Source: a virus. Taken from it: a DNA stretch of 56,557 nucleotides. Below the pieces are notes generated by a model that saw only the letters and a program-made list of their open reading frames with translations, searched no databases and was not told the DNA's origin. The translations under genes were made by a program, and so were the position numbers. Below, piece by piece: positions 28,821 to 51,374 of the stretch. How positions within the stretch are numbered: the first letter of the stretch is position 1; the number at the start of each line of letters is the position of its first letter. Where the stretch lies: the IMG/VR virus record IMGVR_UViG_3300034109_000654, positions 1 to 56,557 of that record; one strand, written 5' to 3'.

Positions 28821-28858
28821 GCCCCGGCTCTGCCGCCGGAACACCTACCGTGGTCGGA

Positions 28859-29452
28859 GTGACCACCACGCCATTCGACAAGCCGACAGTCGATGACATC
28901 GCCAACTCCACACCGGCTTCTGACGAGTCCCTCTGGGAGCGCAGGATGCGCGCGGTCACCATGCGGAACGCTGGCAGGACTTATCAGCAGATCGCCGAGG
29001 CCCTAACCAACGCCGGCACCCCCATCTCGGTCTCCCAGGTCCGCAAGGATGTGGCCAAGGCATACAAGGAGATCATCGGGGAGGCCCGCGACGACATGAT
29101 CGCCCGGCAGCGCAGTGTGCTGTTCGACTTTCAGAGGGCCAACTACCTCGATGCCATCAACACCGACCCTGATCGCACCGATGAGCGTGCCACCGCCCAG
29201 AAGCTGATCCTCTCGGCGATGGACCACGAGGCCAAGCTGTTCGGTCTGTACTCACCGCAGCGGGTCAGCCTGGGCATCAGTGACACCGAGTTCGCCGAGG
29301 AGACCGCCAGGCTCATTTCGGAGCTTGGGTTGCAGCCACCCAAGGAGTTGCTGCTCGGCCGGGAGCGCCAGGAGGAAGCGGTCGACGCCGAGGTGGTCGA
29401 GGCGGTGGAGGCCGCACCCGTCGAACGTGTACCGGACTGGTCAAACATCTGA
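28859..29452 (+). CDS. Terminase small subunit-like HTH protein
   Basis: 197 aa. N-terminal HTH (RMRAVTMRNAGRTYQQIAEA, then ISVSQVRKDVAKAYKE) and a helical core (DDMIARQRSVLFDFQRANYL, KLILSAMDHEAKLFGLYSPQ) match the shape of phage TerS proteins, which bind packaging sites. TACCGT is seven bases before this GTG, which selects it over GTG 28850; no ribosome-binding site. It is 9 kb away from the large subunit, which is unusual, so another HTH role is possible. Confidence 0.65.
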   Translation: MTTTPFDKPTVDDIANSTPASDESLWERRMRAVTMRNAGRTYQQIAEALTNAGTPISVSQVRKDVAKAYKEIIGEARDDMIARQRSVLFDFQRANYLDAINTDPDRTDERATAQKLILSAMDHEAKLFGLYSPQRVSLGISDTEFAEETARLISELGLQPPKELLLGRERQEEAVDAEVVEAVEAAPVERVPDWSNI

Positions 29453-32422: not shown

Positions 32423-33121
32423 ATGGCCTCACAGCAGCTACCTGCGCCCAACACCATGACCAGTGTTCAGCCGATGGGCCTGTCGACGTATCACCGCAAC
32501 GCCCGGCGCGGCAACGTCGATGCGATCGTCGGAAGCCTCAAAGCGAATGGGCAGTACAAGCCCATCGTGGTCAACATCGGCACGCACACCGGACGGCCCA
32601 ACGAGGTCCTCGCCGGAAACCACACCCTGATGGCGTTCCGCAATCTGGCCGAGATGTATCCCACCGACGAACGATGGAACGAGATTCAGGTCTACTGGGT
32701 CGATGTCGACGACGACCGCGCCACCCGCATCGTGCTGGCCGACAACCGCACCGCCGAGGACTCGACCTACGACGATGTGATGCTCTACGACCTCATCAAG
32801 AGCCTGGGCGATGACCTGGACGGCTCCGGGTTCACCGACACCGACGTGGACAAGCTCAGCTACCTGGACAAGATGTTCAGCCCCGACGACGGCGACGACG
32901 GCCCCGACGGCTACGACACCACCGACAACGAGACCGTGGTGATCGACGTCGGCAAGGTCCCCCCGGTCTGCGCCGAGGTCGGCGTGGTGGTGGGACGGAT
33001 CAGGTTCAAGATGGCGCGGGACCTGTATGTGTCGTGGTACGACGAGCTCCGCGAGCAGGTCGGGTACGACGACGAGGCGCTGTCCAGCGCCGTCCAGCAG
33101 CGGCTCGGAATGATCCAGTGA
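32423..33121 (+). CDS. ParB/sulfiredoxin-fold protein
   Basis: 232 aa. Residues about 12-115 form a ParB-like domain: YHRNARRGNVDAIVGSLKAN, GQYKPIVVN, EVLAGNHTLMAF (the GNHR-like catalytic loop, here GNHT) and VLADNRTAE. C-terminal acidic and variable. TATGGT lies seven bases before this ATG, preferred over the ATG at 32411. Such phage ParB proteins are often linked to DNA modification or nicking rather than partition. The next gene starts inside its stop codon, so the two probably work together. Confidence 0.85.
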   Translation: MASQQLPAPNTMTSVQPMGLSTYHRNARRGNVDAIVGSLKANGQYKPIVVNIGTHTGRPNEVLAGNHTLMAFRNLAEMYPTDERWNEIQVYWVDVDDDRATRIVLADNRTAEDSTYDDVMLYDLIKSLGDDLDGSGFTDTDVDKLSYLDKMFSPDDGDDGPDGYDTTDNETVVIDVGKVPPVCAEVGVVVGRIRFKMARDLYVSWYDELREQVGYDDEALSSAVQQRLGMIQ

Positions 33122-34650
33122 TCCTCAAGGTCGTGTCCACCGAGGACATTCGCCCCTCCACCTACAACCCCCGCCAGGCCGACCCCGAACGCCTCGAGCT
33201 GGTCAAGCTGTCGCTGTCCAAGCTGGGCTGGCTGCTGCCGATCTACGCCGACGCGGGCGGGGAGATCCTGTCCGGCCACCAGCGCCACTACGTCGCCACC
33301 GAGATGATGGGCATGACCGAGGTGCCCGTCGCCTACACCAAGGCCATGACCCTGCCGCAGCGCAAGGCCATCAACATCGCGTTCAACCGTGGCACCAACG
33401 ACATGGAGTCCCACACGCTGACCGGCACCCTGGCCGAGGCGATCAAGAGCTCTGGCGTGGTGGAGATGGCGGCGGCGCTGCCCGACGCCACCGGGACCAT
33501 GCCCATCCTCGACGCCCGCCAGGAGCCCATCGGCCCGATCCTCAAGGCCAACAAGGGCCGGTGGAGCCGTCACGCCAAGAACGTCAGCCGGATGCTGATT
33601 CACCGGGGCGTGGAGATGCCGGTGATCGTCGACGAGGACAACCGGGTCATCAACGGCATCGGCCGGCTCGAGCAGTACGCGATCCTGAAATACACCACCA
33701 TCGACGTGCTCCGGCTGCCCAACAACGTCGCCAAGGTCGCCGAGGTGATGCTCAATCTGCTCACGATGGACTTCGACCTGCACCGCCGCTATTCCGACGA
33801 ACTGCGCTACAACAGCTTCCGGCGGGCCTACACCACCCGCAAGCAGCTCGGTGTCGGCATGACCTTCGCCGCGGTCAACTCCAACCGGCGCATGGAGTTC
33901 GACATCCTCAACCCGACGCACGCCAGTGGCTGGAAGAAGGTCTACGGGGACCGGATTCTGGACTTCGGCGCCGGGCATCTGTGGGAGACCGAGATGCTCC
34001 GCAAGGCCGGATGCACCGTCAGCCCGTTCGAGCCCTACCACGTCGGCCAGGGCGGTCAGATCGACAAGCAGAAGTCCCTGGCGCTGACCGATGCGTTCCT
34101 GCGCGACGTGGCCGGCGGGGTGGACTGGGACTCGATCTTCCTGTCCTCGGTGCTCAACTCGGTGCCGTTCGAGGCCGACCGGTTCCACATCGTGCAGCTG
34201 CTCAACGCGCTGGCCCAGCCGACCGAGACCCATCCTGAGGGCGCGGCGGTGTACGCGGTGGCGCTCTCGACGGCCAACGACTCCTGGCGGGACAACACCG
34301 CTCAGAAAACCGGGCTGAACAAGACCCACTACGACCGGCCCAGCTTCCGGCTGGACCACGAGCCAGGCGTGAGCCTGGCCGACTTTCTCGAGGTCCCGAA
34401 GATTCAGAAGTACCACTCGATGCCGGAGTTCCGGGCGCTGTTCGCCAGCGGGTTCGGCAAGGCTCAGACCAACCATGTGGGAACCAACTGCCAGGGCGTG
34501 TTCCGCGACCCGCTGCCGGTGGACCCGGCCAAGCTGGCGGCGGCTATCGACTTCGAGTTCGAGCTGCCCTATCCCGACGGGACACACATGGAGCGGTCAC
34601 GTCAGGCCAGGGCGGCGTTTGAGCAGCGGCTGGGAATGACGCTGCCCTAG
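33118..34650 (+). CDS. ParB-ParB-methyltransferase fusion
   Basis: 510 aa. N-terminal ParB-like domain (STEDIRPSTYNPRQADPERL, EILSGHQRHYVA). A second ParB-like segment (about 143-205) has ILKANKGRWSRHAKNVSRML, PVIVDEDNRVINGIGRLEQY. Residues about 275-480 contain a Rossmann methyltransferase core: RILDFGAGHLWETEMLRKAG (motif I), then DWDSIFLSSVLNSVPFEADR, which resembles motif IV plus the VLN-x-VP helix of some DNA-modification-associated methyltransferases. GTG overlaps the stop of the upstream ParB gene. Probably recognises and modifies DNA or nucleotides; substrate unknown. Confidence 0.8.
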   Translation: MILKVVSTEDIRPSTYNPRQADPERLELVKLSLSKLGWLLPIYADAGGEILSGHQRHYVATEMMGMTEVPVAYTKAMTLPQRKAINIAFNRGTNDMESHTLTGTLAEAIKSSGVVEMAAALPDATGTMPILDARQEPIGPILKANKGRWSRHAKNVSRMLIHRGVEMPVIVDEDNRVINGIGRLEQYAILKYTTIDVLRLPNNVAKVAEVMLNLLTMDFDLHRRYSDELRYNSFRRAYTTRKQLGVGMTFAAVNSNRRMEFDILNPTHASGWKKVYGDRILDFGAGHLWETEMLRKAGCTVSPFEPYHVGQGGQIDKQKSLALTDAFLRDVAGGVDWDSIFLSSVLNSVPFEADRFHIVQLLNALAQPTETHPEGAAVYAVALSTANDSWRDNTAQKTGLNKTHYDRPSFRLDHEPGVSLADFLEVPKIQKYHSMPEFRALFASGFGKAQTNHVGTNCQGVFRDPLPVDPAKLAAAIDFEFELPYPDGTHMERSRQARAAFEQRLGMTLP

Positions 34651-38420: not shown

Positions 38421-38511
38421 AGTGGCTCCTTTCCGGGTGTCGTCCCAGGTAATAACACTTTCTGTAATAGGTATTTTACCAGAATGCCGGTAGCACACCT
38501 AACCTTTGCGT
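38421..38511. promoter_or_regulatory. Divergent promoter gap S5 (regulator / terminase)
   Basis: Contains ATAGGTATT (38467-38475), a good operator half-site with a poor partner at the 9-4-9 spacing. Leftward: TTATTA-like -10 before the regulator. Rightward: TAACCT (38500-38505) six bases before the terminase ATG (leaderless), and a second possible TATTTT -10 at 38472. Confidence 0.6.
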
Positions 38512-40227
38512 ATGCAAATAACGGCCTCTGATATTTACAACGAGGACGGCACGTTCTCCTCCGAGCGCGCCGCCAAGGTTTACGAGCAGGCGCGGCAATG
38601 GCCGCCGGAGCAGAAGATCGCCGCCCTCAAGTGGCTCGAGTCCGCGGTTCAGCGCGACCGCATCCGCAGCCGCTACTCCAACGCCGCCGAGCTCGCTCAG
38701 GCCGTGGACCCCGACTTCGTGATAACCCCGGCCCTGAAACTGATCGCTGACGCCATCGAGACCGTCCTGGCCAAGCCTCGCCACAACCTGCTCATCACGA
38801 CACCTCCGCAGGAGGGCAAGTCGACGATGTGCGCGGTGTGGGCTCCGATCCGGGCCTGGCAGCTCAACCCCAATCGCCGGGTGATCCTGTCCTCCTACGG
38901 CGACGACCTGGCCCGCACCCATTCCACCAACTGCCGCAGCGTCATCGAGTCGCACGGCTCCGACGTGTTCGACCCGCTGACCGGAGCGCGGGTCGAGGAC
39001 AAGCTGGGACTCAAGATCAGCACCAAGTCCCGGCGCATCGACGCCTGGAAGATCGAGGGTGCCCGCGGCGGCATGGTCGCCGTCGGCCTGGGATCGGCGA
39101 TCACCGGCCGCGCCGCAGACCTGTTCATCATCGACGACCCGTACAAGAACATGCAGGAGGCCGACTCCATGACCCACCGCGAGAAGGTGGACATGTGGAT
39201 GAGTTCGGTGGCCCTGACCCGCCTGTCGCCGGAAGCCTCGATCATTCTGGTTCAGACTCGCTGGCACCCCGAGGACCTGGCGGGTAAGACCATCGCCGCC
39301 GAGGCCGAGCTGCCCCGCGATCAGCGGACCTGGCGCTACATCAACATTCCGGCCATCAGCGAGGAAGGTGTCTACGACTCGCTGAACCGGCCGCCGGGTA
39401 AGGCGATGATCTCCGCGCGTGGCCGCACCAGGGCAGAGTTCGATGCCACCCGCCGCCAGGTCGGCGAGCGGGTCTGGTACGCGCTGTACCAGGGGATGCC
39501 GACCAACCCTGCCGGCGGTCTGTTCGAGCGTGCCTGGTTCGATCCTCGCGTCAAGTCCACCGATGTCATTCAGCCGGTCGCCGCCGTGGTGGGCATCGAC
39601 CCCGCCGATTCCGGCGAGGGTGACGAGACCGGCATCATCGGCGGCGTGCTGCAGCCAGACGGCACCGTGGTCCTCACCGAGGACTGGTCGGGACTGCACA
39701 CCGCCGAGCAGTGGGCACGCAAAGCGGTCGATCTCGCGCTGACCATCGGCGCCCGAGAGATCGCTATGGAGGGCTATGCCACGTTCCGCACCTACGAGGC
39801 GGTAATTCGGCGCTCCTACCAGGAAGCCCACCGAGAAGCGCGAGAGGCGCTGGCCGAGGGCAAGGAACTGACGGCACTGCAACTCAACGCGCTCTCACCC
39901 TCCCAGCCGTTCATCATCTCCAAGTACACCGAGGCCGGTGATCCGGTGGGCCGCGCCGCCGCGCTGCGCCAGGCGCTGGAACTCAAGCGAGCACGGGTCG
40001 TCGAGTACAAGCTGGGCGTGTTCGAGGACCAGGCCGCGGACTGGCAGGCCGGTCAGCACTGCCCTGATCGGGTGGCGGCAGCGGTGATCTGCCACTGGCG
40101 GCTGTCCCGTCTGGGGTCGGGTCAGACCGACTACGCAGCCCCTCTGCACGGCACCGCCAGACCCGCTCCGGACTGGCTGACCCGGAAGGTGAGCGGCTCG
40201 CCCTCGTTACCAGTACGAAGCCGTTAG
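38512..40227 (+). CDS. terL: Terminase large subunit
   Basis: 571 aa packaging motor and nuclease. ATPase: TTPPQEGKST (Walker A-like, about 101), LFIIDDPYKN (Walker B, about 206), VQTRWHPEDLAG coupling motif. Nuclease: VVGIDPADSGEGDETG (about 361) and further acidic residues. ATG at 38512 is chosen over an in-frame TTG six bases earlier because TAACCT is spaced six bases from it. First gene of the rightward virion operon. Confidence 0.95.
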   Translation: MQITASDIYNEDGTFSSERAAKVYEQARQWPPEQKIAALKWLESAVQRDRIRSRYSNAAELAQAVDPDFVITPALKLIADAIETVLAKPRHNLLITTPPQEGKSTMCAVWAPIRAWQLNPNRRVILSSYGDDLARTHSTNCRSVIESHGSDVFDPLTGARVEDKLGLKISTKSRRIDAWKIEGARGGMVAVGLGSAITGRAADLFIIDDPYKNMQEADSMTHREKVDMWMSSVALTRLSPEASIILVQTRWHPEDLAGKTIAAEAELPRDQRTWRYINIPAISEEGVYDSLNRPPGKAMISARGRTRAEFDATRRQVGERVWYALYQGMPTNPAGGLFERAWFDPRVKSTDVIQPVAAVVGIDPADSGEGDETGIIGGVLQPDGTVVLTEDWSGLHTAEQWARKAVDLALTIGAREIAMEGYATFRTYEAVIRRSYQEAHREAREALAEGKELTALQLNALSPSQPFIISKYTEAGDPVGRAAALRQALELKRARVVEYKLGVFEDQAADWQAGQHCPDRVAAAVICHWRLSRLGSGQTDYAAPLHGTARPAPDWLTRKVSGSPSLPVRSR

Positions 40228-41627: not shown

Positions 41628-43472
41628 GTGGCGGCTCCTGATCTGCGAATAGTCCGGCGGCGGCGGCGGGGCGCTGTGTCGGCATCTCTGGTCGCGGCGA
41701 GCGCCCCGGTTGACAACCCGCAGGCGACGTTCAAGAACTCGATGGCCATTGCCGGCCGAACCGGCTGGCAGACCGAAGCCTGGAACATGATGGACAACGT
41801 CGGCGAGCTCCGGTACTACGTCAACTGGCGGTCGCACTCCTGCAGTCGCGTTCGACTGGTGGCCTCCGAACTCGACGATTCCGGCCTGCCTACCGGCAAG
41901 ACCTCCAACGCGCGGGTCGACGCCATCGTCAAAGCCATCGGTGGCGGCTCTCAGCTGACCGTGGGACAGCTCATCAAGCGGACGGTGGAGTGTCTGACCG
42001 TCGTCGGTGAGGTGTGGGTCGCCATCATCATTCAGCCTGACGGTCGGGAGCGGTGGTACGCCTTCTCCCGCGACGAGATCCGCAAGAAGGGCGAGGAGGT
42101 CACGGTCACGCTGCCCGACGGCACCGATCACGACCTGCGGCCCAACGTCGATGTCATCTTCCGTGTGTGGAACCCGCACCCTCGCAAGGCTGCCGACCCC
42201 GACTCCTCGGTGCGCTCCAATCTCGACGTGCTCCATGAGATCGTCCGCACCACGCAGACCATCGCCAACGCCGGGAAGTCCCGCCTGATCGGCAACGGCA
42301 TCGTGTTCGTGCCCCAGGAGATGAGCCTGCCGATGGCGCACGGCCCGATGGCGGCGGCTCCTGACGGCGGTCCTCGAGGGCTGGGGCTGACCGGGCTGCC
42401 TGCCGTTCAGGAGCTGCAGGAGCTTCTGTTCAACGTCGCCAAGGTCGCCTACGAGGACGATGAGTCCTTTGCGGCGATGATCCCCATATTCGCCAGCGTG
42501 CCCGGCGACATGATCGGGAAGGTGTCGCATCTGAAGTTCGACAACGAGATCACCGACACCAACATCAAGATTCGCAACGACGCCATTCACCGCCTCGCTC
42601 TGGGCCTGGACGTGTCCCCGGAACGGATGCTCGGTCTGGGGTCCTCGACGAATCACTGGTCGGCCTGGCAGATCGGTGACACTGACGTGCAGCTGCATAT
42701 CGCCCCGGTGATGGAGACCGTCTGCGACGCCATCACGCAGCAGGTGTTCCGCAACGTGCTGATCCGCGAGGGCATCGACCCCGACGACTACATCGTCTGG
42801 TACGACGCCTCGCAGCTGACCGTCGATCCGGACAAGACCCACTCGGCCACTGACGCCTTCGACCGGGGTGTCATCAACGCCGAGGCGTACCGCGCCTATC
42901 TGGGCCTGGACGCCGATGCGGGCTACGACCTGGCCAGCCTGGACGGGTGGCGGCGGTGGGCGCAGGATCGGGTGTCCCAGGACCCGAAGATGTTCCCCCA
43001 GTTCCTGCCGCTGCTGGACCCCAAGGTGCAGAACGCGATCCCCGAACCGGAGCCGATCGGAAATCCTGTGGGTCGGCCCGAAGTACCCAAGACATCGGAC
43101 ACCACCAACACCGGAGGTAAGCCGTTGACCGAGGGGAAGTCACCCGGCTACGACCAGGGCAAGCGCGGGCGCAAATCTGATGTCGCCTCGAGGGCGATCA
43201 TCGAGGTGATGGTGTCGCGCGCTCTGGAACTGGCCGGGAAACGACGCCGCACCCGCGCCGACAATGACCGGTTGCGCGGCTTGAAACCGCAGCACTTCCA
43301 CCGGGTGATGGAGCCGGTCGGCGAGGACGACATCCCTGAACTCATCAAGGGCTGGGACGACGCACTGGAAGCCGACACGCTGGCCCTGGTCGGACTGGAC
43401 ATCGAGGTGGTGCGCGACGAGGTGCGCCGCGAGGTTCGCCGGCAGTTGACCGCGCAGGTGGTCAATGCCTAG
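41628..43472 (+). CDS. Portal protein
   Basis: 614 aa dodecameric ring at the capsid vertex through which DNA passes. Recognised by position, length and typical segments (WNMMDNVGELRYYVNWRSHS, VGEVWVAIIIQPDGRERWY, VIFRVWNPHPRKA, SPERMLGLGSSTNHWSAWQI). The C-terminal ~100 residues are basic and polar. TAACGT six bases before the GTG and no ribosome-binding site, so leaderless. Ends 41 bases before the protease start. Confidence 0.92.
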   Translation: MAAPDLRIVRRRRRGAVSASLVAASAPVDNPQATFKNSMAIAGRTGWQTEAWNMMDNVGELRYYVNWRSHSCSRVRLVASELDDSGLPTGKTSNARVDAIVKAIGGGSQLTVGQLIKRTVECLTVVGEVWVAIIIQPDGRERWYAFSRDEIRKKGEEVTVTLPDGTDHDLRPNVDVIFRVWNPHPRKAADPDSSVRSNLDVLHEIVRTTQTIANAGKSRLIGNGIVFVPQEMSLPMAHGPMAAAPDGGPRGLGLTGLPAVQELQELLFNVAKVAYEDDESFAAMIPIFASVPGDMIGKVSHLKFDNEITDTNIKIRNDAIHRLALGLDVSPERMLGLGSSTNHWSAWQIGDTDVQLHIAPVMETVCDAITQQVFRNVLIREGIDPDDYIVWYDASQLTVDPDKTHSATDAFDRGVINAEAYRAYLGLDADAGYDLASLDGWRRWAQDRVSQDPKMFPQFLPLLDPKVQNAIPEPEPIGNPVGRPEVPKTSDTTNTGGKPLTEGKSPGYDQGKRGRKSDVASRAIIEVMVSRALELAGKRRRTRADNDRLRGLKPQHFHRVMEPVGEDDIPELIKGWDDALEADTLALVGLDIEVVRDEVRREVRRQLTAQVVNA

Positions 43473-43512
43473 CACTGCCGGTCGATACCGTGGCACCGGA
43501 TTGGAGGACGCA

Positions 43513-45156
43513 ATGACTGACACCATCGGTGACTTCGACACGTCGCTGGATGAGGTGACGGAGGTGGAGGGCGAGACCTTCCGCACGTTCACCAACGCGG
43601 TGATCGCCCTGGTGGGCCAGCCCACCAGCGACGGCAGGATGCTGGCGCAGAACATCGACTTGTCGTTCCGCACCTTCCCGCTGCCGCTGATGTGGTGCAA
43701 GCAGTCCAAGGAAGGTCACTCCGACTCCTACACCGTCGGGGTCATCGAGAGCGCCGCGCTCAACGGCGGCACGGTGGTGGCGTCGGGGTATCTGCTCAAC
43801 ACCGCCGAGGCTGACGAGGCTGCCAACGAACTGGCGCATGGAGTGTCCAGCCCCAGTGTCGATCTGGCGTCCGCGGAGTGGGTGTTCACCGACGCTTCCG
43901 GGGTGGAGTTGGCCGAGGACGCCTCGCCGGACACTCCGATGTTCATGACGTTCACCAAGGCTGAACTGATCGGCACGACGCTGGTCGCCACCGCCGCGTT
44001 CGGGGACACCAAGCTGTCGCTCAACGAGAACCGGGAGCCGCGCGAGGTCGCTCTGGTGGCCAGTGCCGCCGAGGAGTTCCGGCCCAAGGTCTACGACCAC
44101 CGGCTCTTTGAGAACCCGAACCTGCCGGGCCCGACGCTGCCGACGATGGGGGCCGACGGTCGCATCGTGGGGCACCTGGCGGTGTTCGGTCAGTGCCATC
44201 GCAGTGTGCAGACCGAGTGTGTGATGGTGCCGCGCTCACCCAGCGACTACACCCATTTCCACACCAGCCCGGCGATTCGGCTGGACAACGGACAGCGGCT
44301 GCCGGTGGGGCGGCTGACGGTGGGGACCGGACACGCCGACCCTCGGCTTGGGGCAGCCCCGGCAGCCGCTCACTACGACAACACCGGGTCGTGCTTCGCC
44401 CTGGTGCGGGTCGGGGAGGATGCTCATGGCATCTGGTTCTCCGGTGTGGCCGCTCCGTGGGCCACACCGGATCAGGTGGAGCAGGGGGTGTCCTCGCCGC
44501 TGTCCGGTGACTGGCGCAACTTCGGCCAGGGACTCGATCTGGTGGCCGCGTTGGCGGTGAACACGCCGGGGTTCTCGGCGCGGGGCCGTGACGACGATCA
44601 GGGCCAGCCGTTGGCGTTGGTGGCGTCGGTGGGGCCGGTGGTCAAGCCGGGCCACAAGCACACCGGCCTGACTCGCAGCCAGATCAAGGAAGTGGTGCTC
44701 GAAGCCCTCCTCGAGGAGTCCGAGCGTAAGAACCGGGCCATCGAGACGATGGCGGCGATCATCCGGGCCGAGAAGCTGGTGGGCAAGCCGCCCACGGTGC
44801 GGGAGCGCGTCAGGGACCTGCTGGCGGGATTCTCCGAGGGAAACACCCCGCCGCCTGCCGTCCGGGCAGAGGCCCGCCGCGGACTCAAGTGGCGCGACGA
44901 GTTCAACCGCGGCGGCACCGCTGTCGGGGTGGCTCGCGCCCGCGACCTGTCCAACGGCAAGTCGATCAGCAGCGACACCATCAGCCGGATGAACTCCTAC
45001 TTCGCCCGCCACGAGGTGGACAAGAAGGGCAAGGGGTGGAGCCCCGGTTCGGAGGGCTACCCCAGCGCCGGACGTATCGCCTGGGCCTTGTGGGGCGGCG
45101 ATGCGGGCCGGTCGTGGAGCGCGTCAGTGTCGAAGAAGAACAAGAAGGAGAACTGA
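43513..45156 (+). CDS. Capsid maturation protease with C-terminal accessory domain
   Basis: 547 aa. N-terminal half contains HSDSYTVGVIESAAL and repeated strand blocks (GHLAVFGQCHRSV ... FHTSPAIRLDNGQRLPVG) as in phage prohead proteases, with a helical scaffold-like middle. The last ~80 residues (RRGLKWRDEFNRGGTAVGVA, ISRMNSYFARHEVDKKGKGW, GRIAWALWGGDAGR) form a small domain found in many phage and plasmid proteins. ATG chosen for GGAGG six bases upstream; a TACCGT (43487) may give its own transcript. Confidence 0.85.
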   Translation: MTDTIGDFDTSLDEVTEVEGETFRTFTNAVIALVGQPTSDGRMLAQNIDLSFRTFPLPLMWCKQSKEGHSDSYTVGVIESAALNGGTVVASGYLLNTAEADEAANELAHGVSSPSVDLASAEWVFTDASGVELAEDASPDTPMFMTFTKAELIGTTLVATAAFGDTKLSLNENREPREVALVASAAEEFRPKVYDHRLFENPNLPGPTLPTMGADGRIVGHLAVFGQCHRSVQTECVMVPRSPSDYTHFHTSPAIRLDNGQRLPVGRLTVGTGHADPRLGAAPAAAHYDNTGSCFALVRVGEDAHGIWFSGVAAPWATPDQVEQGVSSPLSGDWRNFGQGLDLVAALAVNTPGFSARGRDDDQGQPLALVASVGPVVKPGHKHTGLTRSQIKEVVLEALLEESERKNRAIETMAAIIRAEKLVGKPPTVRERVRDLLAGFSEGNTPPPAVRAEARRGLKWRDEFNRGGTAVGVARARDLSNGKSISSDTISRMNSYFARHEVDKKGKGWSPGSEGYPSAGRIAWALWGGDAGRSWSASVSKKNKKEN

Positions 45157-45277: not shown

Positions 45278-45477
45278 TGGGATGCGGGTGCTCCAAAGCG
45301 TCCCGCTACCGCGCGGCCGGCATGGAGATCAGCGGCTACCGGGTGACGCTGCCGGACGGCACCGTCGTGCCGCCGCTGGACATGCCGCCGTTCCTGTCTC
45401 CCATCGAGGCCAAGGCCGAGGTACGGGCAGCCGGGGGCGGCACAGTCCGCACCGAGGCGCACAAGAGGATCGAATGA
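45277..45477 (+). CDS. MGCGC-type small protein
   Basis: 66 aa starting MGCGCSKASRYR, an N-terminus seen in many phage head-operon proteins of unknown function. Cys3 and Cys5 could bind metal. Overlaps neighbours at both ends. Confidence 0.75.
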   Translation: MGCGCSKASRYRAAGMEISGYRVTLPDGTVVPPLDMPPFLSPIEAKAEVRAAGGGTVRTEAHKRIE

Positions 45478-45767
45478 TCCGCGCAATGGCGGTCGGGGCA
45501 CTGCTGGCGGCGGTGGCCCTGGCCCCTCACGCCAGGGCCGACGACCGGTCGTTCCTCGACGCGGTGGCGGTGTTGGGTTACACCGACCGCAGTGAGGCTC
45601 TGCGTAACGGCTATACGGTGTGCGTGATGCGTACCGAGGCCAGCGGTGATTTGACCGACCGCGTGCTGCGGGAGGTGCTGAGCCGGTTGGATCGCCCGGA
45701 GGCGGCGGCAGAGAGCGACGAGTTCGCCGCTCTTGCCGTCAAGCACCTCTGCCCCGAGCTGGCCTAG
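45474..45767 (+). CDS. Secreted DUF732-like protein
   Basis: 97 aa. Signal peptide (MIRAMAVGALLAAVALAPHA then RA). The mature part DRSFLDAVAVLGYTDRSEAL, GYTVCVMRTEASG and AVKHLCPEL, with two Cys likely disulfide-bonded, matches DUF732, a family abundant in Mycobacterium secreted proteins. Probably acquired from a host; may be expressed from the prophage or displayed outside the cell. Convergent with the integrase (four-base overlap). Confidence 0.75.
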   Translation: MIRAMAVGALLAAVALAPHARADDRSFLDAVAVLGYTDRSEALRNGYTVCVMRTEASGDLTDRVLREVLSRLDRPEAAAESDEFAALAVKHLCPELA

Positions 45768-46717
45768 TCCTCACTGAGCCGGTCGGTGATCCGGCGCAGA
45801 TCATCCAGCGACGACGCGGTGTATATCTGAGTCGTGGCCACGCTGGCGTGGCCGAGCAGATCGCGCACCTGAATCAGATTGGCTCCCAGACGCAGGCTCC
45901 GGGTGGCGTAGCGGTGACGCAGCTTGTGCATCGTCCACCCGCCGGGCATCAGTTCCCCGACCAGCTTGCCCACCGTGGCTGCCGACAGGTGTCCGTTCTC
46001 CTGGCCGGGGAACAGATACCCGCCGTTGGGCCGAAACCGGCGTATCGCCAGGGCCAGCTTCTCGCCGACCGGAACGATCCGCTGCTTGCCGCCCTTGCCG
46101 TGCACGATCAGTGACCAACCGACGAGGTCCTCGATGAGGTCCTGAGTGTGGCAGCGGGCCACCTCTCCGCGCCGCATTCCCGCTTCTCCGGCCAGGCGCA
46201 CCATCATCCGTTCCCGTTCGGGAGCGGCGATGAGGGTCTCCTGCCACATGCCGTCGGGGACAGGTCGAGGTCTGCCTGGCCGTGCTGAGACCTTGGGCAG
46301 CCGGATGGCCGGATTGCTCTCGCAGAGACCATTGGTCACCGCCCAGTCGTAGAACCCGATCAACGAGCACCGCACACCGCGTCGGTGCTCGTTGCTCCAT
46401 CCCTCCTCGCTGCACAGCCGAACCAACGTCGCCAGGTCGATGTCGCGGGGATGGTGTGTCTCGCTGCGGCGGGCTATCTCGCGGACGTGGCCCCGCCGTG
46501 TCCGTTGCGTGGTTTTCGGCATCCCGCTGGCGGCCAGCCAGATCAGCCAGCCGCTGACCGCGCTTTCCCAGGAAGCCGAGAGTTGATACTTCTGTTTGTG
46601 TGTGCGGGGTCTGGGCACGTCTGAATTAATTACACTGCCGTTGATTTCTTCCACAACAAGTTTCAGGACTTGTTGCCGTTTTGTAGCAAACTTACTTACA
46701 CGGGTGTTACCTGACAT
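45764..46717 (-). CDS. int: Tyrosine integrase
   Basis: 317 aa site-specific recomb., with core-binding domain (SAVSGWLIWLAASGMPKTTQ) and catalytic residues Arg in AGMRRGEVARC (about 183), HKLRHRYAT (about 264) and the LLGHASVATTQIYT block with Tyr near 300. ATG has GGAGGGA nine bases upstream. It integrates and excises the phage via the attP at 46771-46807, directly upstream of its own start. Orientation opposes the surrounding virion operon. The short, non-L5-like N-terminus suggests a simple att. Confidence 0.92.
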   Translation of the reverse strand: MSGNTRVSKFATKRQQVLKLVVEEINGSVINSDVPRPRTHKQKYQLSASWESAVSGWLIWLAASGMPKTTQRTRRGHVREIARRSETHHPRDIDLATLVRLCSEEGWSNEHRRGVRCSLIGFYDWAVTNGLCESNPAIRLPKVSARPGRPRPVPDGMWQETLIAAPERERMMVRLAGEAGMRRGEVARCHTQDLIEDLVGWSLIVHGKGGKQRIVPVGEKLALAIRRFRPNGGYLFPGQENGHLSAATVGKLVGELMPGGWTMHKLRHRYATRSLRLGANLIQVRDLLGHASVATTQIYTASSLDDLRRITDRLSED

Positions 46718-46749
46718 GGTTGACGGTCCCTCCGCACCGTTGTGGCTAG

Positions 46750-46767
46750 TAGTTGACTTTTCAACTA
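46750..46767. promoter_or_regulatory. 18-bp palindrome beside attP
   Basis: TAGTTGACTTTTCAACTA. Identical outside the centre to TAGTTGAATATGCAACTA at 32301-32318. Lies between the integrase start and attP core, so may regulate int or be an accessory protein site. Confidence 0.7.
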
Positions 46768-46770
46768 CTC

Positions 46771-46807
46771 ACCGGGCGGTTGATGGTTCGAGTCCATCCG
46801 GGGGAGC
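46771..46807 (+). other. attP core (tRNA 3'-half identity)
   Basis: ACCGGGCGGTTGATGG, TTCGAGT, CCATC and CGGGGGA-GCA are exactly the anticodon-stem 3' side, variable loop, T-arm (GATGG/CCATC) and acceptor 3' strand of a tRNA. No 5' half exists, so it is not a tRNA gene but the shared core for integration into a host tRNA gene, restoring its 3' end. The shape suits a tRNA-Asn but this is not proven. Confidence 0.8.
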
Positions 46808-47124
46808 AGCAAAGCTGTGGTAGCCTTGGCTCGGCTTCGGCCACAGCCTTCCCGTCGGGGGACGTGGAACCGGCTGTATCGGCGGTGGTAGGTCCGGTCA
46901 GGGGACGGGACCTACCCCCGTCGAGTTCCCGGTGGACTGTCATCGTGACCCTTTTTCGGGCTCCTGAAAAGACCTATTTCGTTCGCATTTTGCGTTCGCA
47001 AATACTTTGACTGCACGGCCTGTACTTACTGTCGGCAACTGCGAGAGCTTCTGATCTGGCTACGGGCCGGGGAGCGATCAACGACAGAGATGTACGGGTT
47101 CGATTCAGAACAGGAGTCAGCGCA

Positions 47125-48777
47125 GTGACGTTCCAACTGCCCGACGAGTTGCCGATCACTCCCGAGGAACTGACCTCGCTGCGTGACCAGGCCACCGCCG
47201 ATATCACCGATATTCAGCGCCGCTACGAAGCGGGTGAGGAATTGTCCGACGCCGATGTGGAGGGCTTGACCACTCTGCTCGACGCGGTGGATTCCCTCAA
47301 CTCCGCTCTGGCGGCGGCAGAGGCCGAAGCCGAGGCACACCGTGCCGCCGTGGCCGAGGTCATCGAGCGGTCCAAAGCGGCCACCGCCGAGCCGGTCCTC
47401 GAGGAGGCCGTCGTGGAGGAAACCGAGGACGACAGGTACAGCGGCGACGACGTCGCCGAGCCGGTCGCAGTCGCCGCGTCCGCTCCTGCTCCGGTCACCT
47501 TTGCCGGTGCCGGTGCCACCGAGCCGCCGGCCGAGGAGACCGGACCGGGCTGGGAGATGGTTCCCGGTGCGCCGGGCTGGCGACCCGGAAAGATCGGGTT
47601 CAAGGAGATGGGTGCCGCCATCGACTCCGTGCGCGGTCACAACGCACGGGTTCGCCCCAACCGCTCCGATGTCCGTTCAATGGCCGCCCGCGGCCTGGCC
47701 CAGTTGTCCCGGCAGATGACCGTGGTCAACGACAGCCACGAACTGGTGCGTGAGATCGAGCGGGCCACCTCCGAGATCCCCGGATACGGCAAGGTGACCG
47801 CTCAGGCTCTCACCGCAGCCGGTGGCTGGTGCGCCCCGTCGGAGCAGATCTACACGTTCTGCGACGTGCCCGAGGCCACCGACCTCATCAGCCTGCCGGA
47901 AATCGCCATCAACCGTGGCGGCATCCGCTGGCCGGTGGAGCCGGACCTCTCGGCGATCTTCGAGAGCTACGAGTTCTTCTTCACCGAGCCGGAACTGGAA
48001 GCAGTCGACGCCGACGGTCACCCGACCGCCATCAAGCACTGCGTCGAGATCCCCTGCCCCGATGAGTTCGTCGAGATGCGGCTCAACGCTGTGGGCTACT
48101 GCGTGGAGGCGGGCATTCTGCAGCGGCAGGGCTGGCCCGAGTCCATCGAATGGTTCCTGCGGTCGCTGACCCAGGAGCACTTCCGGGCGCTGAGCCGGCG
48201 CACCATTCTCGACATGGTGGCCGGGTCCACGCCGAAGAAGATCACCGCCGATCAGGTCAACGCGACCTCCTCAGTGCTCAACTCGATTGCGCTGATGGCC
48301 ACCAACCTTCGGCTCAACCGTGGGTTGAGCCGAAGCGCCACCATCGAAGGTGTCGCACCGAACTGGTTGCACGAGGTGCTGCGCGCCGATCTGGCGCTCA
48401 TGCAGGGCCGCAACAACCTGGCCGTGGGTGACGGTGAGATCAGCGGTTGGCTCAACGCCCGCAACATCTCGCTGCAGTTCGTCGGTGACTGGCAGACCCG
48501 TGGTGTGGGCGAGCCGGGCCACCTGGACACGATGAAGTGGCCGAGCAAGGTCAACGTGCTGCTCTACCCGGCGGGGACCTGGTTCCGGTCGCTGAGCAAC
48601 ATCATCGAGGTCGGGGTGCTCTACCCGAAGGAACAGTTGCAAATCAACCGCTACACCGAGTTCTTCACCGAGGACGCGATTGCGGTCGGCAAGCGGTGCA
48701 ACCACTCGCTGAACGTCGAAATCCCGATCTGCCCGACCGGCGGATACGGGGCTCCGGTCGAGATCACCTGCTCCTGA
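47125..48777 (+). CDS. Major capsid protein with N-terminal scaffold region
   Basis: 550 aa. Residues 1-110 are helical and acidic (SLRDQATADITDIQRRYEAG, SALAAAEAEAEAHRAAVAEV), like a delta domain removed by the protease; 110-160 Pro-rich; from about 190 an HK97-like core (SEIPGYGKVTAQALTAAGGW, ISLPEIAINRGGIRWPVEPD, LLYPAGTWFRSLSNIIEVGV, KEQLQINRYTEFFTED). GTG with CAGGAG upstream. Several Cys in the core are notable. Followed by a 16-bp hairpin. Confidence 0.85.
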   Translation: MTFQLPDELPITPEELTSLRDQATADITDIQRRYEAGEELSDADVEGLTTLLDAVDSLNSALAAAEAEAEAHRAAVAEVIERSKAATAEPVLEEAVVEETEDDRYSGDDVAEPVAVAASAPAPVTFAGAGATEPPAEETGPGWEMVPGAPGWRPGKIGFKEMGAAIDSVRGHNARVRPNRSDVRSMAARGLAQLSRQMTVVNDSHELVREIERATSEIPGYGKVTAQALTAAGGWCAPSEQIYTFCDVPEATDLISLPEIAINRGGIRWPVEPDLSAIFESYEFFFTEPELEAVDADGHPTAIKHCVEIPCPDEFVEMRLNAVGYCVEAGILQRQGWPESIEWFLRSLTQEHFRALSRRTILDMVAGSTPKKITADQVNATSSVLNSIALMATNLRLNRGLSRSATIEGVAPNWLHEVLRADLALMQGRNNLAVGDGEISGWLNARNISLQFVGDWQTRGVGEPGHLDTMKWPSKVNVLLYPAGTWFRSLSNIIEVGVLYPKEQLQINRYTEFFTEDAIAVGKRCNHSLNVEIPICPTGGYGAPVEITCS

Positions 48778-48864: not shown

Positions 48865-49749
48865 ATGACCTCCCCAGAGCAACTAGGCAAGCTCTACCCG
48901 CCACACAGCCCCGCCGTTGGTGACGGGCTCTACGACGACGCAGGACAGCCCCACGTCGACGGGCTCTATGACCCGCGATCCGGCAGCGCGGGGGACCGCT
49001 GGACGCCGCTGTTCTACCCTCCCTACCTGCCGCCGCCGCGCGGCCTGTATGACGTGGTGACCTGGGTGCAGGACGGCGGCACGCCGCTGCGCTTCCTGGA
49101 AGGGCTTCAAGTCCGGCTGACCAACGTCGATCTGGACACCCAGTTCGGAGTCTGGGGCGAGGACTGGTGCGCCGACCCGGACTCCATCACCGACACCAAG
49201 GCCAAGGACCGCCCCGACGCGGTGACCGCCGACTTCGAGGCCATGACTGTGTACGGCTTCGACCAGAACCAGTGCGGGGACCTGTCCAGGGATTCTCGCG
49301 CAGAGGTCCGCACCCGGGCGGCCCAGGTGCTGGCAGTGACCGAACAGATCGCGGTGGAGACCACTCTGGCTCCGCGGCTGCTGGCAGACGCTCCGACAGC
49401 TGTGACAGCTTCGTCTGTCACAGATGCGGTAAGCCTGCTCGAGGTCGGTCTGGCCAAGGCCGGGCTGACCGGCTACCTGCACGCCAGCCCCAAGTGGGCC
49501 GCGTATCTGGCCGAGCACCGGCTGAACCTGGGTGGGCGCAGCCCGATGGGCCACATGTGGGCGTTCGGCGGCGGTTACGCCGACACGTTGGGCGACACCA
49601 TCGTCGGGACTACCGCCGTGTTCGGGTGGCGCGGCCCGATCACTCTGCGGGACGCCATCAAGTACGAGCTGAACCAGTATGTGGCCGTGGCCGAGAGGTC
49701 GCTGCTGATCGCCTACGAGACCGCTGTGGTGGCGGTCAAGGTCGGATAG
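48865..49749 (+). CDS. Virion structural protein, capsid-like second head protein
   Basis: 294 aa, ATG with AGAAGGGA upstream. WVQDGGTPLRFLEGLQVRLT, AQVLAVTEQIAVETTLAPRL, YLHASPKWAAYLAEHRLNLG and FGWRGPITLRDAIKYELNQY resemble parts of HK97-fold head proteins found next to the capsid gene in some actinophages. It may be a minor capsid or decoration protein. Assignment from position. Confidence 0.6.
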   Translation: MTSPEQLGKLYPPHSPAVGDGLYDDAGQPHVDGLYDPRSGSAGDRWTPLFYPPYLPPPRGLYDVVTWVQDGGTPLRFLEGLQVRLTNVDLDTQFGVWGEDWCADPDSITDTKAKDRPDAVTADFEAMTVYGFDQNQCGDLSRDSRAEVRTRAAQVLAVTEQIAVETTLAPRLLADAPTAVTASSVTDAVSLLEVGLAKAGLTGYLHASPKWAAYLAEHRLNLGGRSPMGHMWAFGGGYADTLGDTIVGTTAVFGWRGPITLRDAIKYELNQYVAVAERSLLIAYETAVVAVKVG

Positions 49750-50570: not shown

Positions 50571-51374
50571 ATGAGCGTCTTTCCCGTGGTCAAGGGCCTC
50601 CGGCTCCGCGCCACCAAAATCAACCGGTGCGGCCTGCCGATGTCCGGCAATGCCAATCGGCTCGTCACCGAAGGCTTCGTCTCCGTTCGGCTCAGTCCGG
50701 TGATGAAGGACGCTCAGGAGCTCGAGCAGGAGAACGCCGAGGGCAGGGTGTGCGTCCAGGACCGCACTCCGGCGATCCGCAAGCACTTCAACGTCGAGCT
50801 GGAGTTGTGCAACGTCAACACCGGCCTGATCGCCATGTTCAGCGGGTGGAGCCAGGTAATCGACTTCGCCAACAACCCCATCGGGTTCCAGGATTCTCCC
50901 AACGTGGACGATCAGTACGGGGTCGTCTTAGAGGTGTGGACCGGCGGTCGTTCCGACGAGGACTGCGAGCCGCAGAAGCTGGACACCGTGTTCACCACGC
51001 CCAGCACGGGGATCAACTACGGCTACCTGCTGTTCGGGGCCACCGAGTTCACTCTGGGCAACATCGAGATCGGCGCGAGCATCTCGACGTTCACTCTGAG
51101 CGGGATCACCATTCCGATCCCCCAGTGGGGTCGTGGGCCGTACAACGTCGCCGCCACCAACTCCACCGGCACTGCCGGTCGGCTGTTGGCCCCGGTGGAC
51201 GACGACGCCCACTTCACGATGTTCCGCACTCCGGTGGCACCGCCGGCCCCGACGCCGGGTTCGCGTCCGGCCAAGCTGGACATCCCCGGCAAGTTCACCG
51301 GCACCACCTACTACTTCGGTGGTCCGACGAACGCCCCGGCCGCCGCTATCGCCCCGGCGCAAACCGACACCTGA
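50571..51374 (+). CDS. Major tail protein
   Basis: 267 aa, ATG with AGGAGGTAG. FPVVKGLRLRATKINRCGLP, EGFVSVRLSPVMKD, FNVELELCNVNTGLIAMFSG and TLSGITIPIPQWGRGPYNVA follow the tail-tube beta-barrel pattern; C-terminal FRTPVAPPAPTPGSRPAKL is typical of actinophage tail-tube proteins. Stop overlaps the next ATG (TGATG). Confidence 0.8.
   Translation: MSVFPVVKGLRLRATKINRCGLPMSGNANRLVTEGFVSVRLSPVMKDAQELEQENAEGRVCVQDRTPAIRKHFNVELELCNVNTGLIAMFSGWSQVIDFANNPIGFQDSPNVDDQYGVVLEVWTGGRSDEDCEPQKLDTVFTTPSTGINYGYLLFGATEFTLGNIEIGASISTFTLSGITIPIPQWGRGPYNVAATNSTGTAGRLLAPVDDDAHFTMFRTPVAPPAPTPGSRPAKLDIPGKFTGTTYYFGGPTNAPAAAIAPAQTDT

What the first reader, a model, noticed from the sequence alone, without database searches (positions are those of the whole stretch)
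45764..46807. Integrase and attP inserted between protease and major capsid genes
The integrase, reversed relative to its neighbours, with attP just 54 bases upstream of its start, splits the virion operon. Integration would put different DNA upstream of both int and the capsid gene. In most known actinophages int lies elsewhere.
Basis: partly seen in the sequence, partly recalled or inferred. Interest (0 to 1): 0.6.

Follow-up and report, generated by a model that had tools for sequence, protein, structure and literature searches.

The report
Phage integration site inside capsid operon
This phage carries its integrase and its chromosome-attachment site in the middle of the genes that build its head, so becoming a prophage cuts that gene set in two; a small, old family of related phages shares this layout together with a pair of conserved RNA hairpins between the attachment site and the capsid gene.

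Summary
A complete tyrosine integrase (45764-46717, minus) and an attP core (46773-46808) lie between the head protease and the major capsid gene. The core matches the 3' half of tRNA-Asn(GTT) genes, 36 of 36 bases in the best hosts. The order is not unique: it recurs on three other metagenomic contigs, and Mycobacterium abscessus MabQ prophages are the same layout opened at this site (capsid at one end, protease-int at the other). Of 70 distinct contigs with both protease and capsid, only 4 hold this int in the gap; 0 of 11 prophages from one host genus do. The embedded integrases form one clade, so the layout is old and inherited. Integration does change the DNA upstream of int and capsid, but the capsid gene keeps 316 bp of its own upstream DNA, with a promoter-like/leader block also found in int-less relatives. 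I infer that they shield capsid genes from tRNA-Asn transcription in lysogens and that excision rejoins the operon; neither is tested.

The parts
43465..45156 (+). head maturation protease gene; becomes the attR-side end of the virion genes in a prophage
   Evidence: PHROG matches to head/packaging proteins including head maturation protease
45280..45477 (+). small gene (DUF7196, starts MGCGCS); similar short ORFs precede the capsid gene in int-less L063-L065
   Evidence: PF23826 E=1.7e-21; read by eye in L063-L065
45474..45767 (+). DUF732 gene, tail-to-tail with int (4-bp overlap)
   Evidence: PF05305 E=2.2e-7; coordinates; a similar ORF is in L061
45764..46717 (-). tyrosine integrase
   Evidence: PF00589 2.9e-22; phrog_1 integrase; catalytic columns invariant
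46748..46769 (.). perfect 9-bp inverted repeat (4-bp spacer) between int and the core; role unknown
   Evidence: position
46773..46808 (+). attP common core = 3' half of tRNA-Asn(GTT), sense strand pointing to the capsid gene
   Evidence: 36/36 bases identical to host tRNA-Asn in L160 and L161; ARAGORN; same tRNA region at both ends of prophi79-1
46809..46826 (+). GCAAA-N7-TAGCCT: conserved promoter-like (or Int-binding) element on the capsid side of the core
   Evidence: same kind of element, spacer 6-10, in 5 of 5 att regions; pattern occurs once in the whole window; function inferred
46843..46877 (+). hairpin 1 (RNA sense)
   Evidence: folds
46879..46924 (+). hairpin 2 (RNA sense), long stem with RGGG loop, covarying
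47012..47079 (+). conserved capsid promoter-like block (TGCAC..TACTGT, 47012-47032) and leader motif (47043-47079)
   Evidence: present in int-less relatives and cluster-B-type phages; function inferred
47125..48777 (+). major capsid (hexamer) gene; becomes the attL-side end of the virion genes in a prophage
   Evidence: phrog_777 6.4e-213
48865..49749 (+). capsid pentamer gene
   Evidence: phrog_779; the homologous LittleMunchkin gene is annotated as pentamer protein

Best explanation
This is the phage's own chromosomal integration module, kept since an old ancestor inside the head-gene operon of a temperate relative of cluster B mycobacteriophages. SHOWN by sequence: a complete tyrosine integrase; one attP whose core equals the 3' half of a host-type tRNA-Asn gene; the same order in related phages; the split, permuted prophage form in M. 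abscessus MabQ; conserved tandem hairpins between core and capsid gene. INFERRED: Int recombines attP with the tRNA-Asn gene; the phage supplies the new 3' half of that tRNA, so the tRNA gene stays whole and, at attL, is transcribed straight toward the capsid gene; terminase-portal-protease-int end up at the other end of the prophage. The tandem RNA hairpins most likely stop or process that incoming transcript, so capsid and tail genes stay silent in the lysogen; excision rejoins the two halves of the late operon. The capsid gene's own promoter-like/leader block stays attached in both states.
For: Int family and catalytic columns; exact attB-type match in host tRNA-Asn; prophi79-1 ends: tRNA-type core then capsid 523 bp in at one end, protease-int-core at the other, and its listed attB-4 overlaps a host tRNA 3' end (PMC8092301 passages); five further MabQ-like contigs with capsid at one end and int at the other; same order in L061, L062, L069; embedded ints one clade. 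Hairpin 2: 94% of cells paired, 11 of 20 pairs with changes on both sides, covariation 0.70 against 0.28 shuffled, 0/500; 17 of 94 pairs are G.U, which would be A.C on the other strand; the hairpin regions fold better than all 200 shuffles in 5 of 5, z -4.4 to -8.4; strong model hits only in the five int-bearing att regions among 59 loci searched.
Against: No transcript, termination or lysogen data. The hairpins lack the U-run of a standard terminator (sequence; scan did not list them). L062 has the int and hairpins but no tRNA core, so the hairpins cannot serve tRNA read-through alone, unless its attP uses another site. The capsid gene seems to have its own promoter-like block, which weakens strict gating by excision. 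The consensus scan found no sigma-70-type promoter in the region. No repressor or excisionase was recognised beside int, and none was clear in a sample of the window's other ORFs.
Confidence: 0.7

Rival explanations
1. The tandem hairpins are a regulatory leader RNA of the capsid transcript (protein-binding or antitermination site, put-like), made from the conserved element next to the core, rather than a barrier to tRNA transcription.
For: Conserved RGGG loop with GUC/GAY flanks in addition to pairing; conserved GCAAA..TANNNT just before hairpin 1 in 5 of 5; present in L062, which has no tRNA core.
Against: The hairpins end about 90 bp upstream of the conserved capsid promoter-like block, and int-less relatives make do without them.
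Confidence: 0.3
2. The 11-base repeats in the hairpins are DNA arm-type sites for Int (P' arm), and the pairing is incidental.
For: Two direct repeats 43 bp apart, starting about 42 and 85 bp beyond the core; only in int-bearing phages.
Against: Stem letters change while pairing is kept; many G.U pairs that would not help a DNA palindrome; no copy on the int side of the core; no arm-binding domain was found by Pfam.
Confidence: 0.2
3. The int is a remnant of a satellite or another mobile element that landed in the late operon (helper-embedded PICI-like, or one of the insertions that this gap attracts), and it does not integrate the whole phage.
For: The protease-capsid gap also holds HNH endonuclease genes in relatives (L064, L122, L140; JAMaL by annotation); embedded satellites in prophage late genes are known (PMC10111431 abstract).
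Against: No other satellite genes between protease and capsid; the boundaries of a whole 76-kb prophage coincide with this att; the core matches a host tRNA gene, not a phage gene.
Confidence: 0.05
4. Two separate gains of sister int modules at the same spot, not one gain with later losses.
For: On the capsid tree the embedded phages fall in two groups, with int-less L063, L064 and L065 among them; at least 2 changes are needed.
Against: The ints form one clade with the same inner grouping as the capsids, and the hairpins are shared; one gain and three losses fits too. Both trees are quick ones.
Confidence: 0.3

Closest known systems
Mycobacterium abscessus cluster MabQ (HQ) prophages, e.g. 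prophi79-1 (MW584153)
   Same: Portal-protease-int(reversed)-att-capsid order, int 57% identical, tRNA-type core, tandem hairpins
   Different: Known as a prophage, so permuted; capsid 53-57% identical; lacks the DUF732 gene; in the passages I read (PMC8092301, PMC9934374, PMC10654092, PMC9434293, PMC8092298) nobody remarks on the int place or the hairpins
Cluster B mycobacteriophages and Gordonia relatives (e.g. LittleMunchkin)
   Same: Related terminase, portal, protease, hexamer and pentamer capsid genes in the same order; conserved capsid leader
   Different: No int between protease and capsid in those examined; the name cluster B for the phages listed is recalled
Standard mycobacteriophage integration cassettes (e.g. 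Bipper; cluster J)
   Same: Tyrosine int; in cluster J beside a tRNA-core attP (PMC3706429 passages)
   Different: Cassette near the genome centre, in Bipper with repressor and excise nearby (PMC3706429 passages)
Helper-embedded PICIs (PMC10111431, abstract)
   Same: Works alike in one respect: a recombinase element interrupts late genes until excision
   Different: There a satellite sits in a helper's gene; here the phage's own attP sits between genes

Membership tests
Tyrosine integrase (PF00589) | Domain match and catalytic residues | tested here: met
   2.9e-22; R182, K208, H264, R267, H290, Y299 columns invariant in 6 rows
tRNA-targeting phage integration module | attP core identical to the 3' part of a host tRNA gene, beside int | tested here: met
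tRNA-targeting phage integration module | attL/attR junctions in a lysogen of this phage | not testable with these tools
   window is a virus record without host flanks; seen for the relative prophi79-1
MabQ-type arrangement | protease-int(reversed)-att-capsid | tested here: met
Cluster MabQ membership | shared gene content above the published cut-off (35%, PMC9434293 passage) | not tested
   only the structural block and int were compared
Integration-dependent immunity system | attP inside the repressor gene | tested here: not met
   attP lies between int and capsid; no repressor family seen at this place
Known Rfam RNA family (hairpins) | match to a curated family | tested here: not met
   0 matches at gathering score in the window; 0 up to E=1 in 46600-47200
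Intrinsic terminator | hairpin followed by a U-run | tested here: not met
   hairpins 1 and 2 not listed by the terminator scan; no U-run seen in the five
Helper-embedded satellite | satellite genes (AlpA, replication zone) beside int | tested here: not met
   only small ORFs, two of them DUF7196 and DUF732 genes, between protease and int

The most novel reading that the evidence does not exclude
A temperate phage lineage has turned its attP into a switch for head building: integration physically separates packaging genes from capsid and tail genes and points a host tRNA promoter at the capsid genes, while a dedicated tandem-hairpin RNA keeps them silent until excision rejoins the operon. This would be an integration-dependent late-gene switch, parallel to integration-dependent immunity but acting on virion genes.
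Probability: 0.25. Interest if true: 0.75.

Novelty: new variant of a known kind. Interest (0 to 1): 0.5.

Why it matters
Temperate phages normally keep attP outside the virion operon (general knowledge). A lineage that has kept it inside offers a natural test of whether integration itself can gate late genes, and of how a prophage copes with a host tRNA promoter aimed at its capsid genes. The covarying tandem hairpins are an RNA element with no Rfam match that can be tested with simple reporters in M. smegmatis. Practically, prophage finders will see such prophages with capsid at one end and portal at the other.

Tried and rejected
Rfam search of the window and of the att region: nothing. Single-motif search GTCGGGGGAYG in the window is no more than chance by count alone (4 found with one mismatch, 7.6 expected); the case rests on pairing and position, not on the motif. 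Tandem-motif scan of viral contigs gave 8 stretches: 3 are int-capsid loci (L069, L070=L062, L072=L061), 5 (L066, L067, L068, L071, L073) look unrelated by eye. A looser single-hairpin scan gave 34 stretches, 2 of them the known loci; of the others only L235, selected by that very pattern, scored 33 bits with model R1, in a Streptomyces-like contig of no clear relation. One of 396 genus genomes gave a weak R1 hit (33 bits) that looks like a host terminator. The single genome-contig scan with the capsid alignment found only one relative. Integrases from class genomes: 5 of the 9 lie by other tRNA-type ends; not followed further. Attempt to read int through attP as an extended gene: in L061 the frame is open through att, but in the window the listed ORF starts at 46717, so dropped. 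No ORF spanning attP seemed kept between relatives, by eye only. Protein-structure tools were not used.

Dropped rows before counts: in the gap count (74 loci) L070, L072, L117 and L144 are second copies of L062, L061, L069 and L114 (same contig, or same length and place), leaving 70 contigs; int was sought only with the window and prophi79-1 integrases, so another recombinase in a gap is not excluded. Of 16 int-less loci with gaps over 700 bp ORFs were listed but only three were tested. Of the 11 genus prophages several have gaps of 1.2-2.5 kb whose genes were not identified. Leader motif: 36 of 68 upstream stretches match a strict pattern; misses include rows where the alignment began inside the gene and rows with a GCTATGTGCC variant. 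The 59 loci were a choice out of about 150 then held, and two of the 59 (L002, L109) are other stretches of MabQ-type prophages.

Full report
What is there. The window is a 56,557-bp IMG/VR virus record. Its structural block runs terminase (38506-40227), portal (41628-43472), protease (43465-45156), capsid hexamer (47125-48777), capsid pentamer (48865-49749), major tail protein (50571-51374) (the pentamer name comes from the annotated homologue in LittleMunchkin). Between protease and capsid, on the other strand, is a 317-aa tyrosine integrase with the usual catalytic columns. Fifty-six bp from its start codon begins a 36-bp stretch that is the 3' half of a tRNA gene. ARAGORN finds no whole tRNA in the window, as expected for an attP core.

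The attachment site. The 30-base core was found exactly in 4 of 393 genomes drawn from an actinobacterial class and with one mismatch in 2 more; all six lie in tRNA-Asn(GTT). In two of the four exact hosts the identity is 36 of 36 bases. The relatives L061 and L069 carry the same tRNA part; L209 and MabQ contigs show it at the int-side end, with T-stem letters that differ in pairs. L062 has no such core. The T-loop motif occurs nowhere else in the window.

Relatives with and without it. Scans of viral contigs with the integrase, the capsid gene, a capsid alignment and an integrase alignment and comparison with 50,697 phage records give this picture. Three metagenomic contigs (L061, L062, L069) have the same order. 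M. abscessus prophi79-1 (MabQ) has portal, protease and reversed int at one end of the prophage and the capsid gene starting 523 bp from the other end; five IMG/VR contigs show the same two ends (capsid L109, L110, L111, L115, L121; int L057, L006, L008, L005, L009). L007, L189 and L209 show the protease-int side only. Among 70 distinct contigs with both protease and capsid, 4 (the window and those three) have this int in the gap; the other 66 do not. In one host genus, 11 of 396 genomes have the capsid gene and none of the 11 has this int between protease and capsid. The gap receives other insertions too: HNH endonucleases in L064, L122 and L140.

History. In a quick tree of 77 integrases the 11 embedded ones form one group (support 99). 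In a quick tree of 83 capsid proteins the embedded phages form two groups inside one larger group (98) that also holds int-less L063, L064 and L065. One old gain with three losses, or two gains of sister modules, both fit. Either way the layout is inherited over long distances, not a recent accident in this phage.

The tandem hairpins. In all five intervals between att and capsid (window, L061, L062, L069, prophi79-1) two hairpins follow each other, each with an apical GUC-RGGG-GAY. For the second hairpin five sequences align without gaps over 44 bases; 94% of cells pair in a 20-bp stem, 11 of 20 pairs show changes on both sides, and no shuffle reaches the observed values. Seventeen of 94 pairs are G.U in the plus strand; on the minus strand these would be A.C, so the structure is most likely selected as RNA transcribed toward the capsid gene. 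Fold energies beat all 200 shuffles in all five. A covariance model searched over 59 loci gives strong hits only in these five. These five also built the model, so that part is by construction; what counts is that the other 54 loci, 52 of them not from MabQ-type prophages, give nothing above 25 bits. Just before hairpin 1 all five have GCAAA-N6-10-TANNNT, a pattern present once in the whole window; it may be a promoter or an Int-binding site.

The capsid side. A block TGCAC..TACTGT followed by AGAG..TGGCTACGGGCCGGGGAGCGATC lies directly upstream of the capsid gene in the int-bearing phages and in int-less relatives (36 of 68 by a strict pattern of its core). It lies on the capsid side of att and therefore stays with the capsid gene after integration. 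That it is a promoter and leader is inference; the consensus scan found no sigma-70-type promoter in the region, and the leader alone does not fold unusually well (z -1.8).

How it probably works. Int recombines the core with tRNA-Asn. The phage core replaces the 3' half of the tRNA, so the gene is rebuilt at attL, reading toward hairpins and capsid. Terminase, portal, protease and int come to lie at attR. Late genes upstream can therefore reach the capsid gene in one transcript only after excision. The hairpins would stop or process the tRNA transcript. Shown: anatomy, attB identity by sequence, the prophage form in MabQ, the conserved hairpins. Inferred: recombination by this Int, insulation, gating. 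L062, with hairpins but no tRNA core, is the main fact against a pure tRNA-insulator role.

Literature. I read section 6 (part 1) and passages of PMC8092301, passages of PMC9934374, PMC10654092, PMC9434293, PMC8092298, PMC3706429, PMC5559632 and PMC3986857, and the abstract and outline of PMC10111431. In what I read nobody comments on the int position in MabQ or on such hairpins; nine full-text searches listed no paper on it by title or abstract start. PMC8092301 states that attB-4, the site listed for prophi79-1, overlaps a host tRNA 3' end; that it is tRNA-Asn is my inference from the core.

Verdict. Its strongest new element is the paired RNA hairpins between attachment site and capsid gene.

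Noticed in passing
window 47012-47079; also L004, L065, L069, L174 and others: A promoter-like and leader block upstream of the capsid gene is conserved across cluster-B-type phages of several hosts, with or without int.
   Followed up: partly
L064 about 1350-1790; L122 and L140 in the protease-capsid gap: HNH endonuclease genes (PF13392) sit in the same gap in int-less relatives, so the gap is a spot that takes insertions.
   Followed up: partly
L235 1970-2004: A single hairpin with the same loop lies upstream of a helix-turn-helix-like gene, about 1.5 kb from another integrase-like ORF, in a Streptomyces-like viral contig.
   Followed up: partly
window 28850-29452: Gene matching a phage RNase E family (phrog_645, 1.9e-43).
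   Followed up: no
window 33034-34650: Large gene with ParB-like nuclease domain (phrog_5475 and ParB families).
   Followed up: no
window 46654-46675: Terminator-like hairpin with a weak T-run on the plus strand inside the 5' part of int, which would face rightward transcription.
   Followed up: no
window 46748-46769: Perfect 9-bp inverted repeat between int start and attP core; could be an operator or an Int core site.
   Followed up: no
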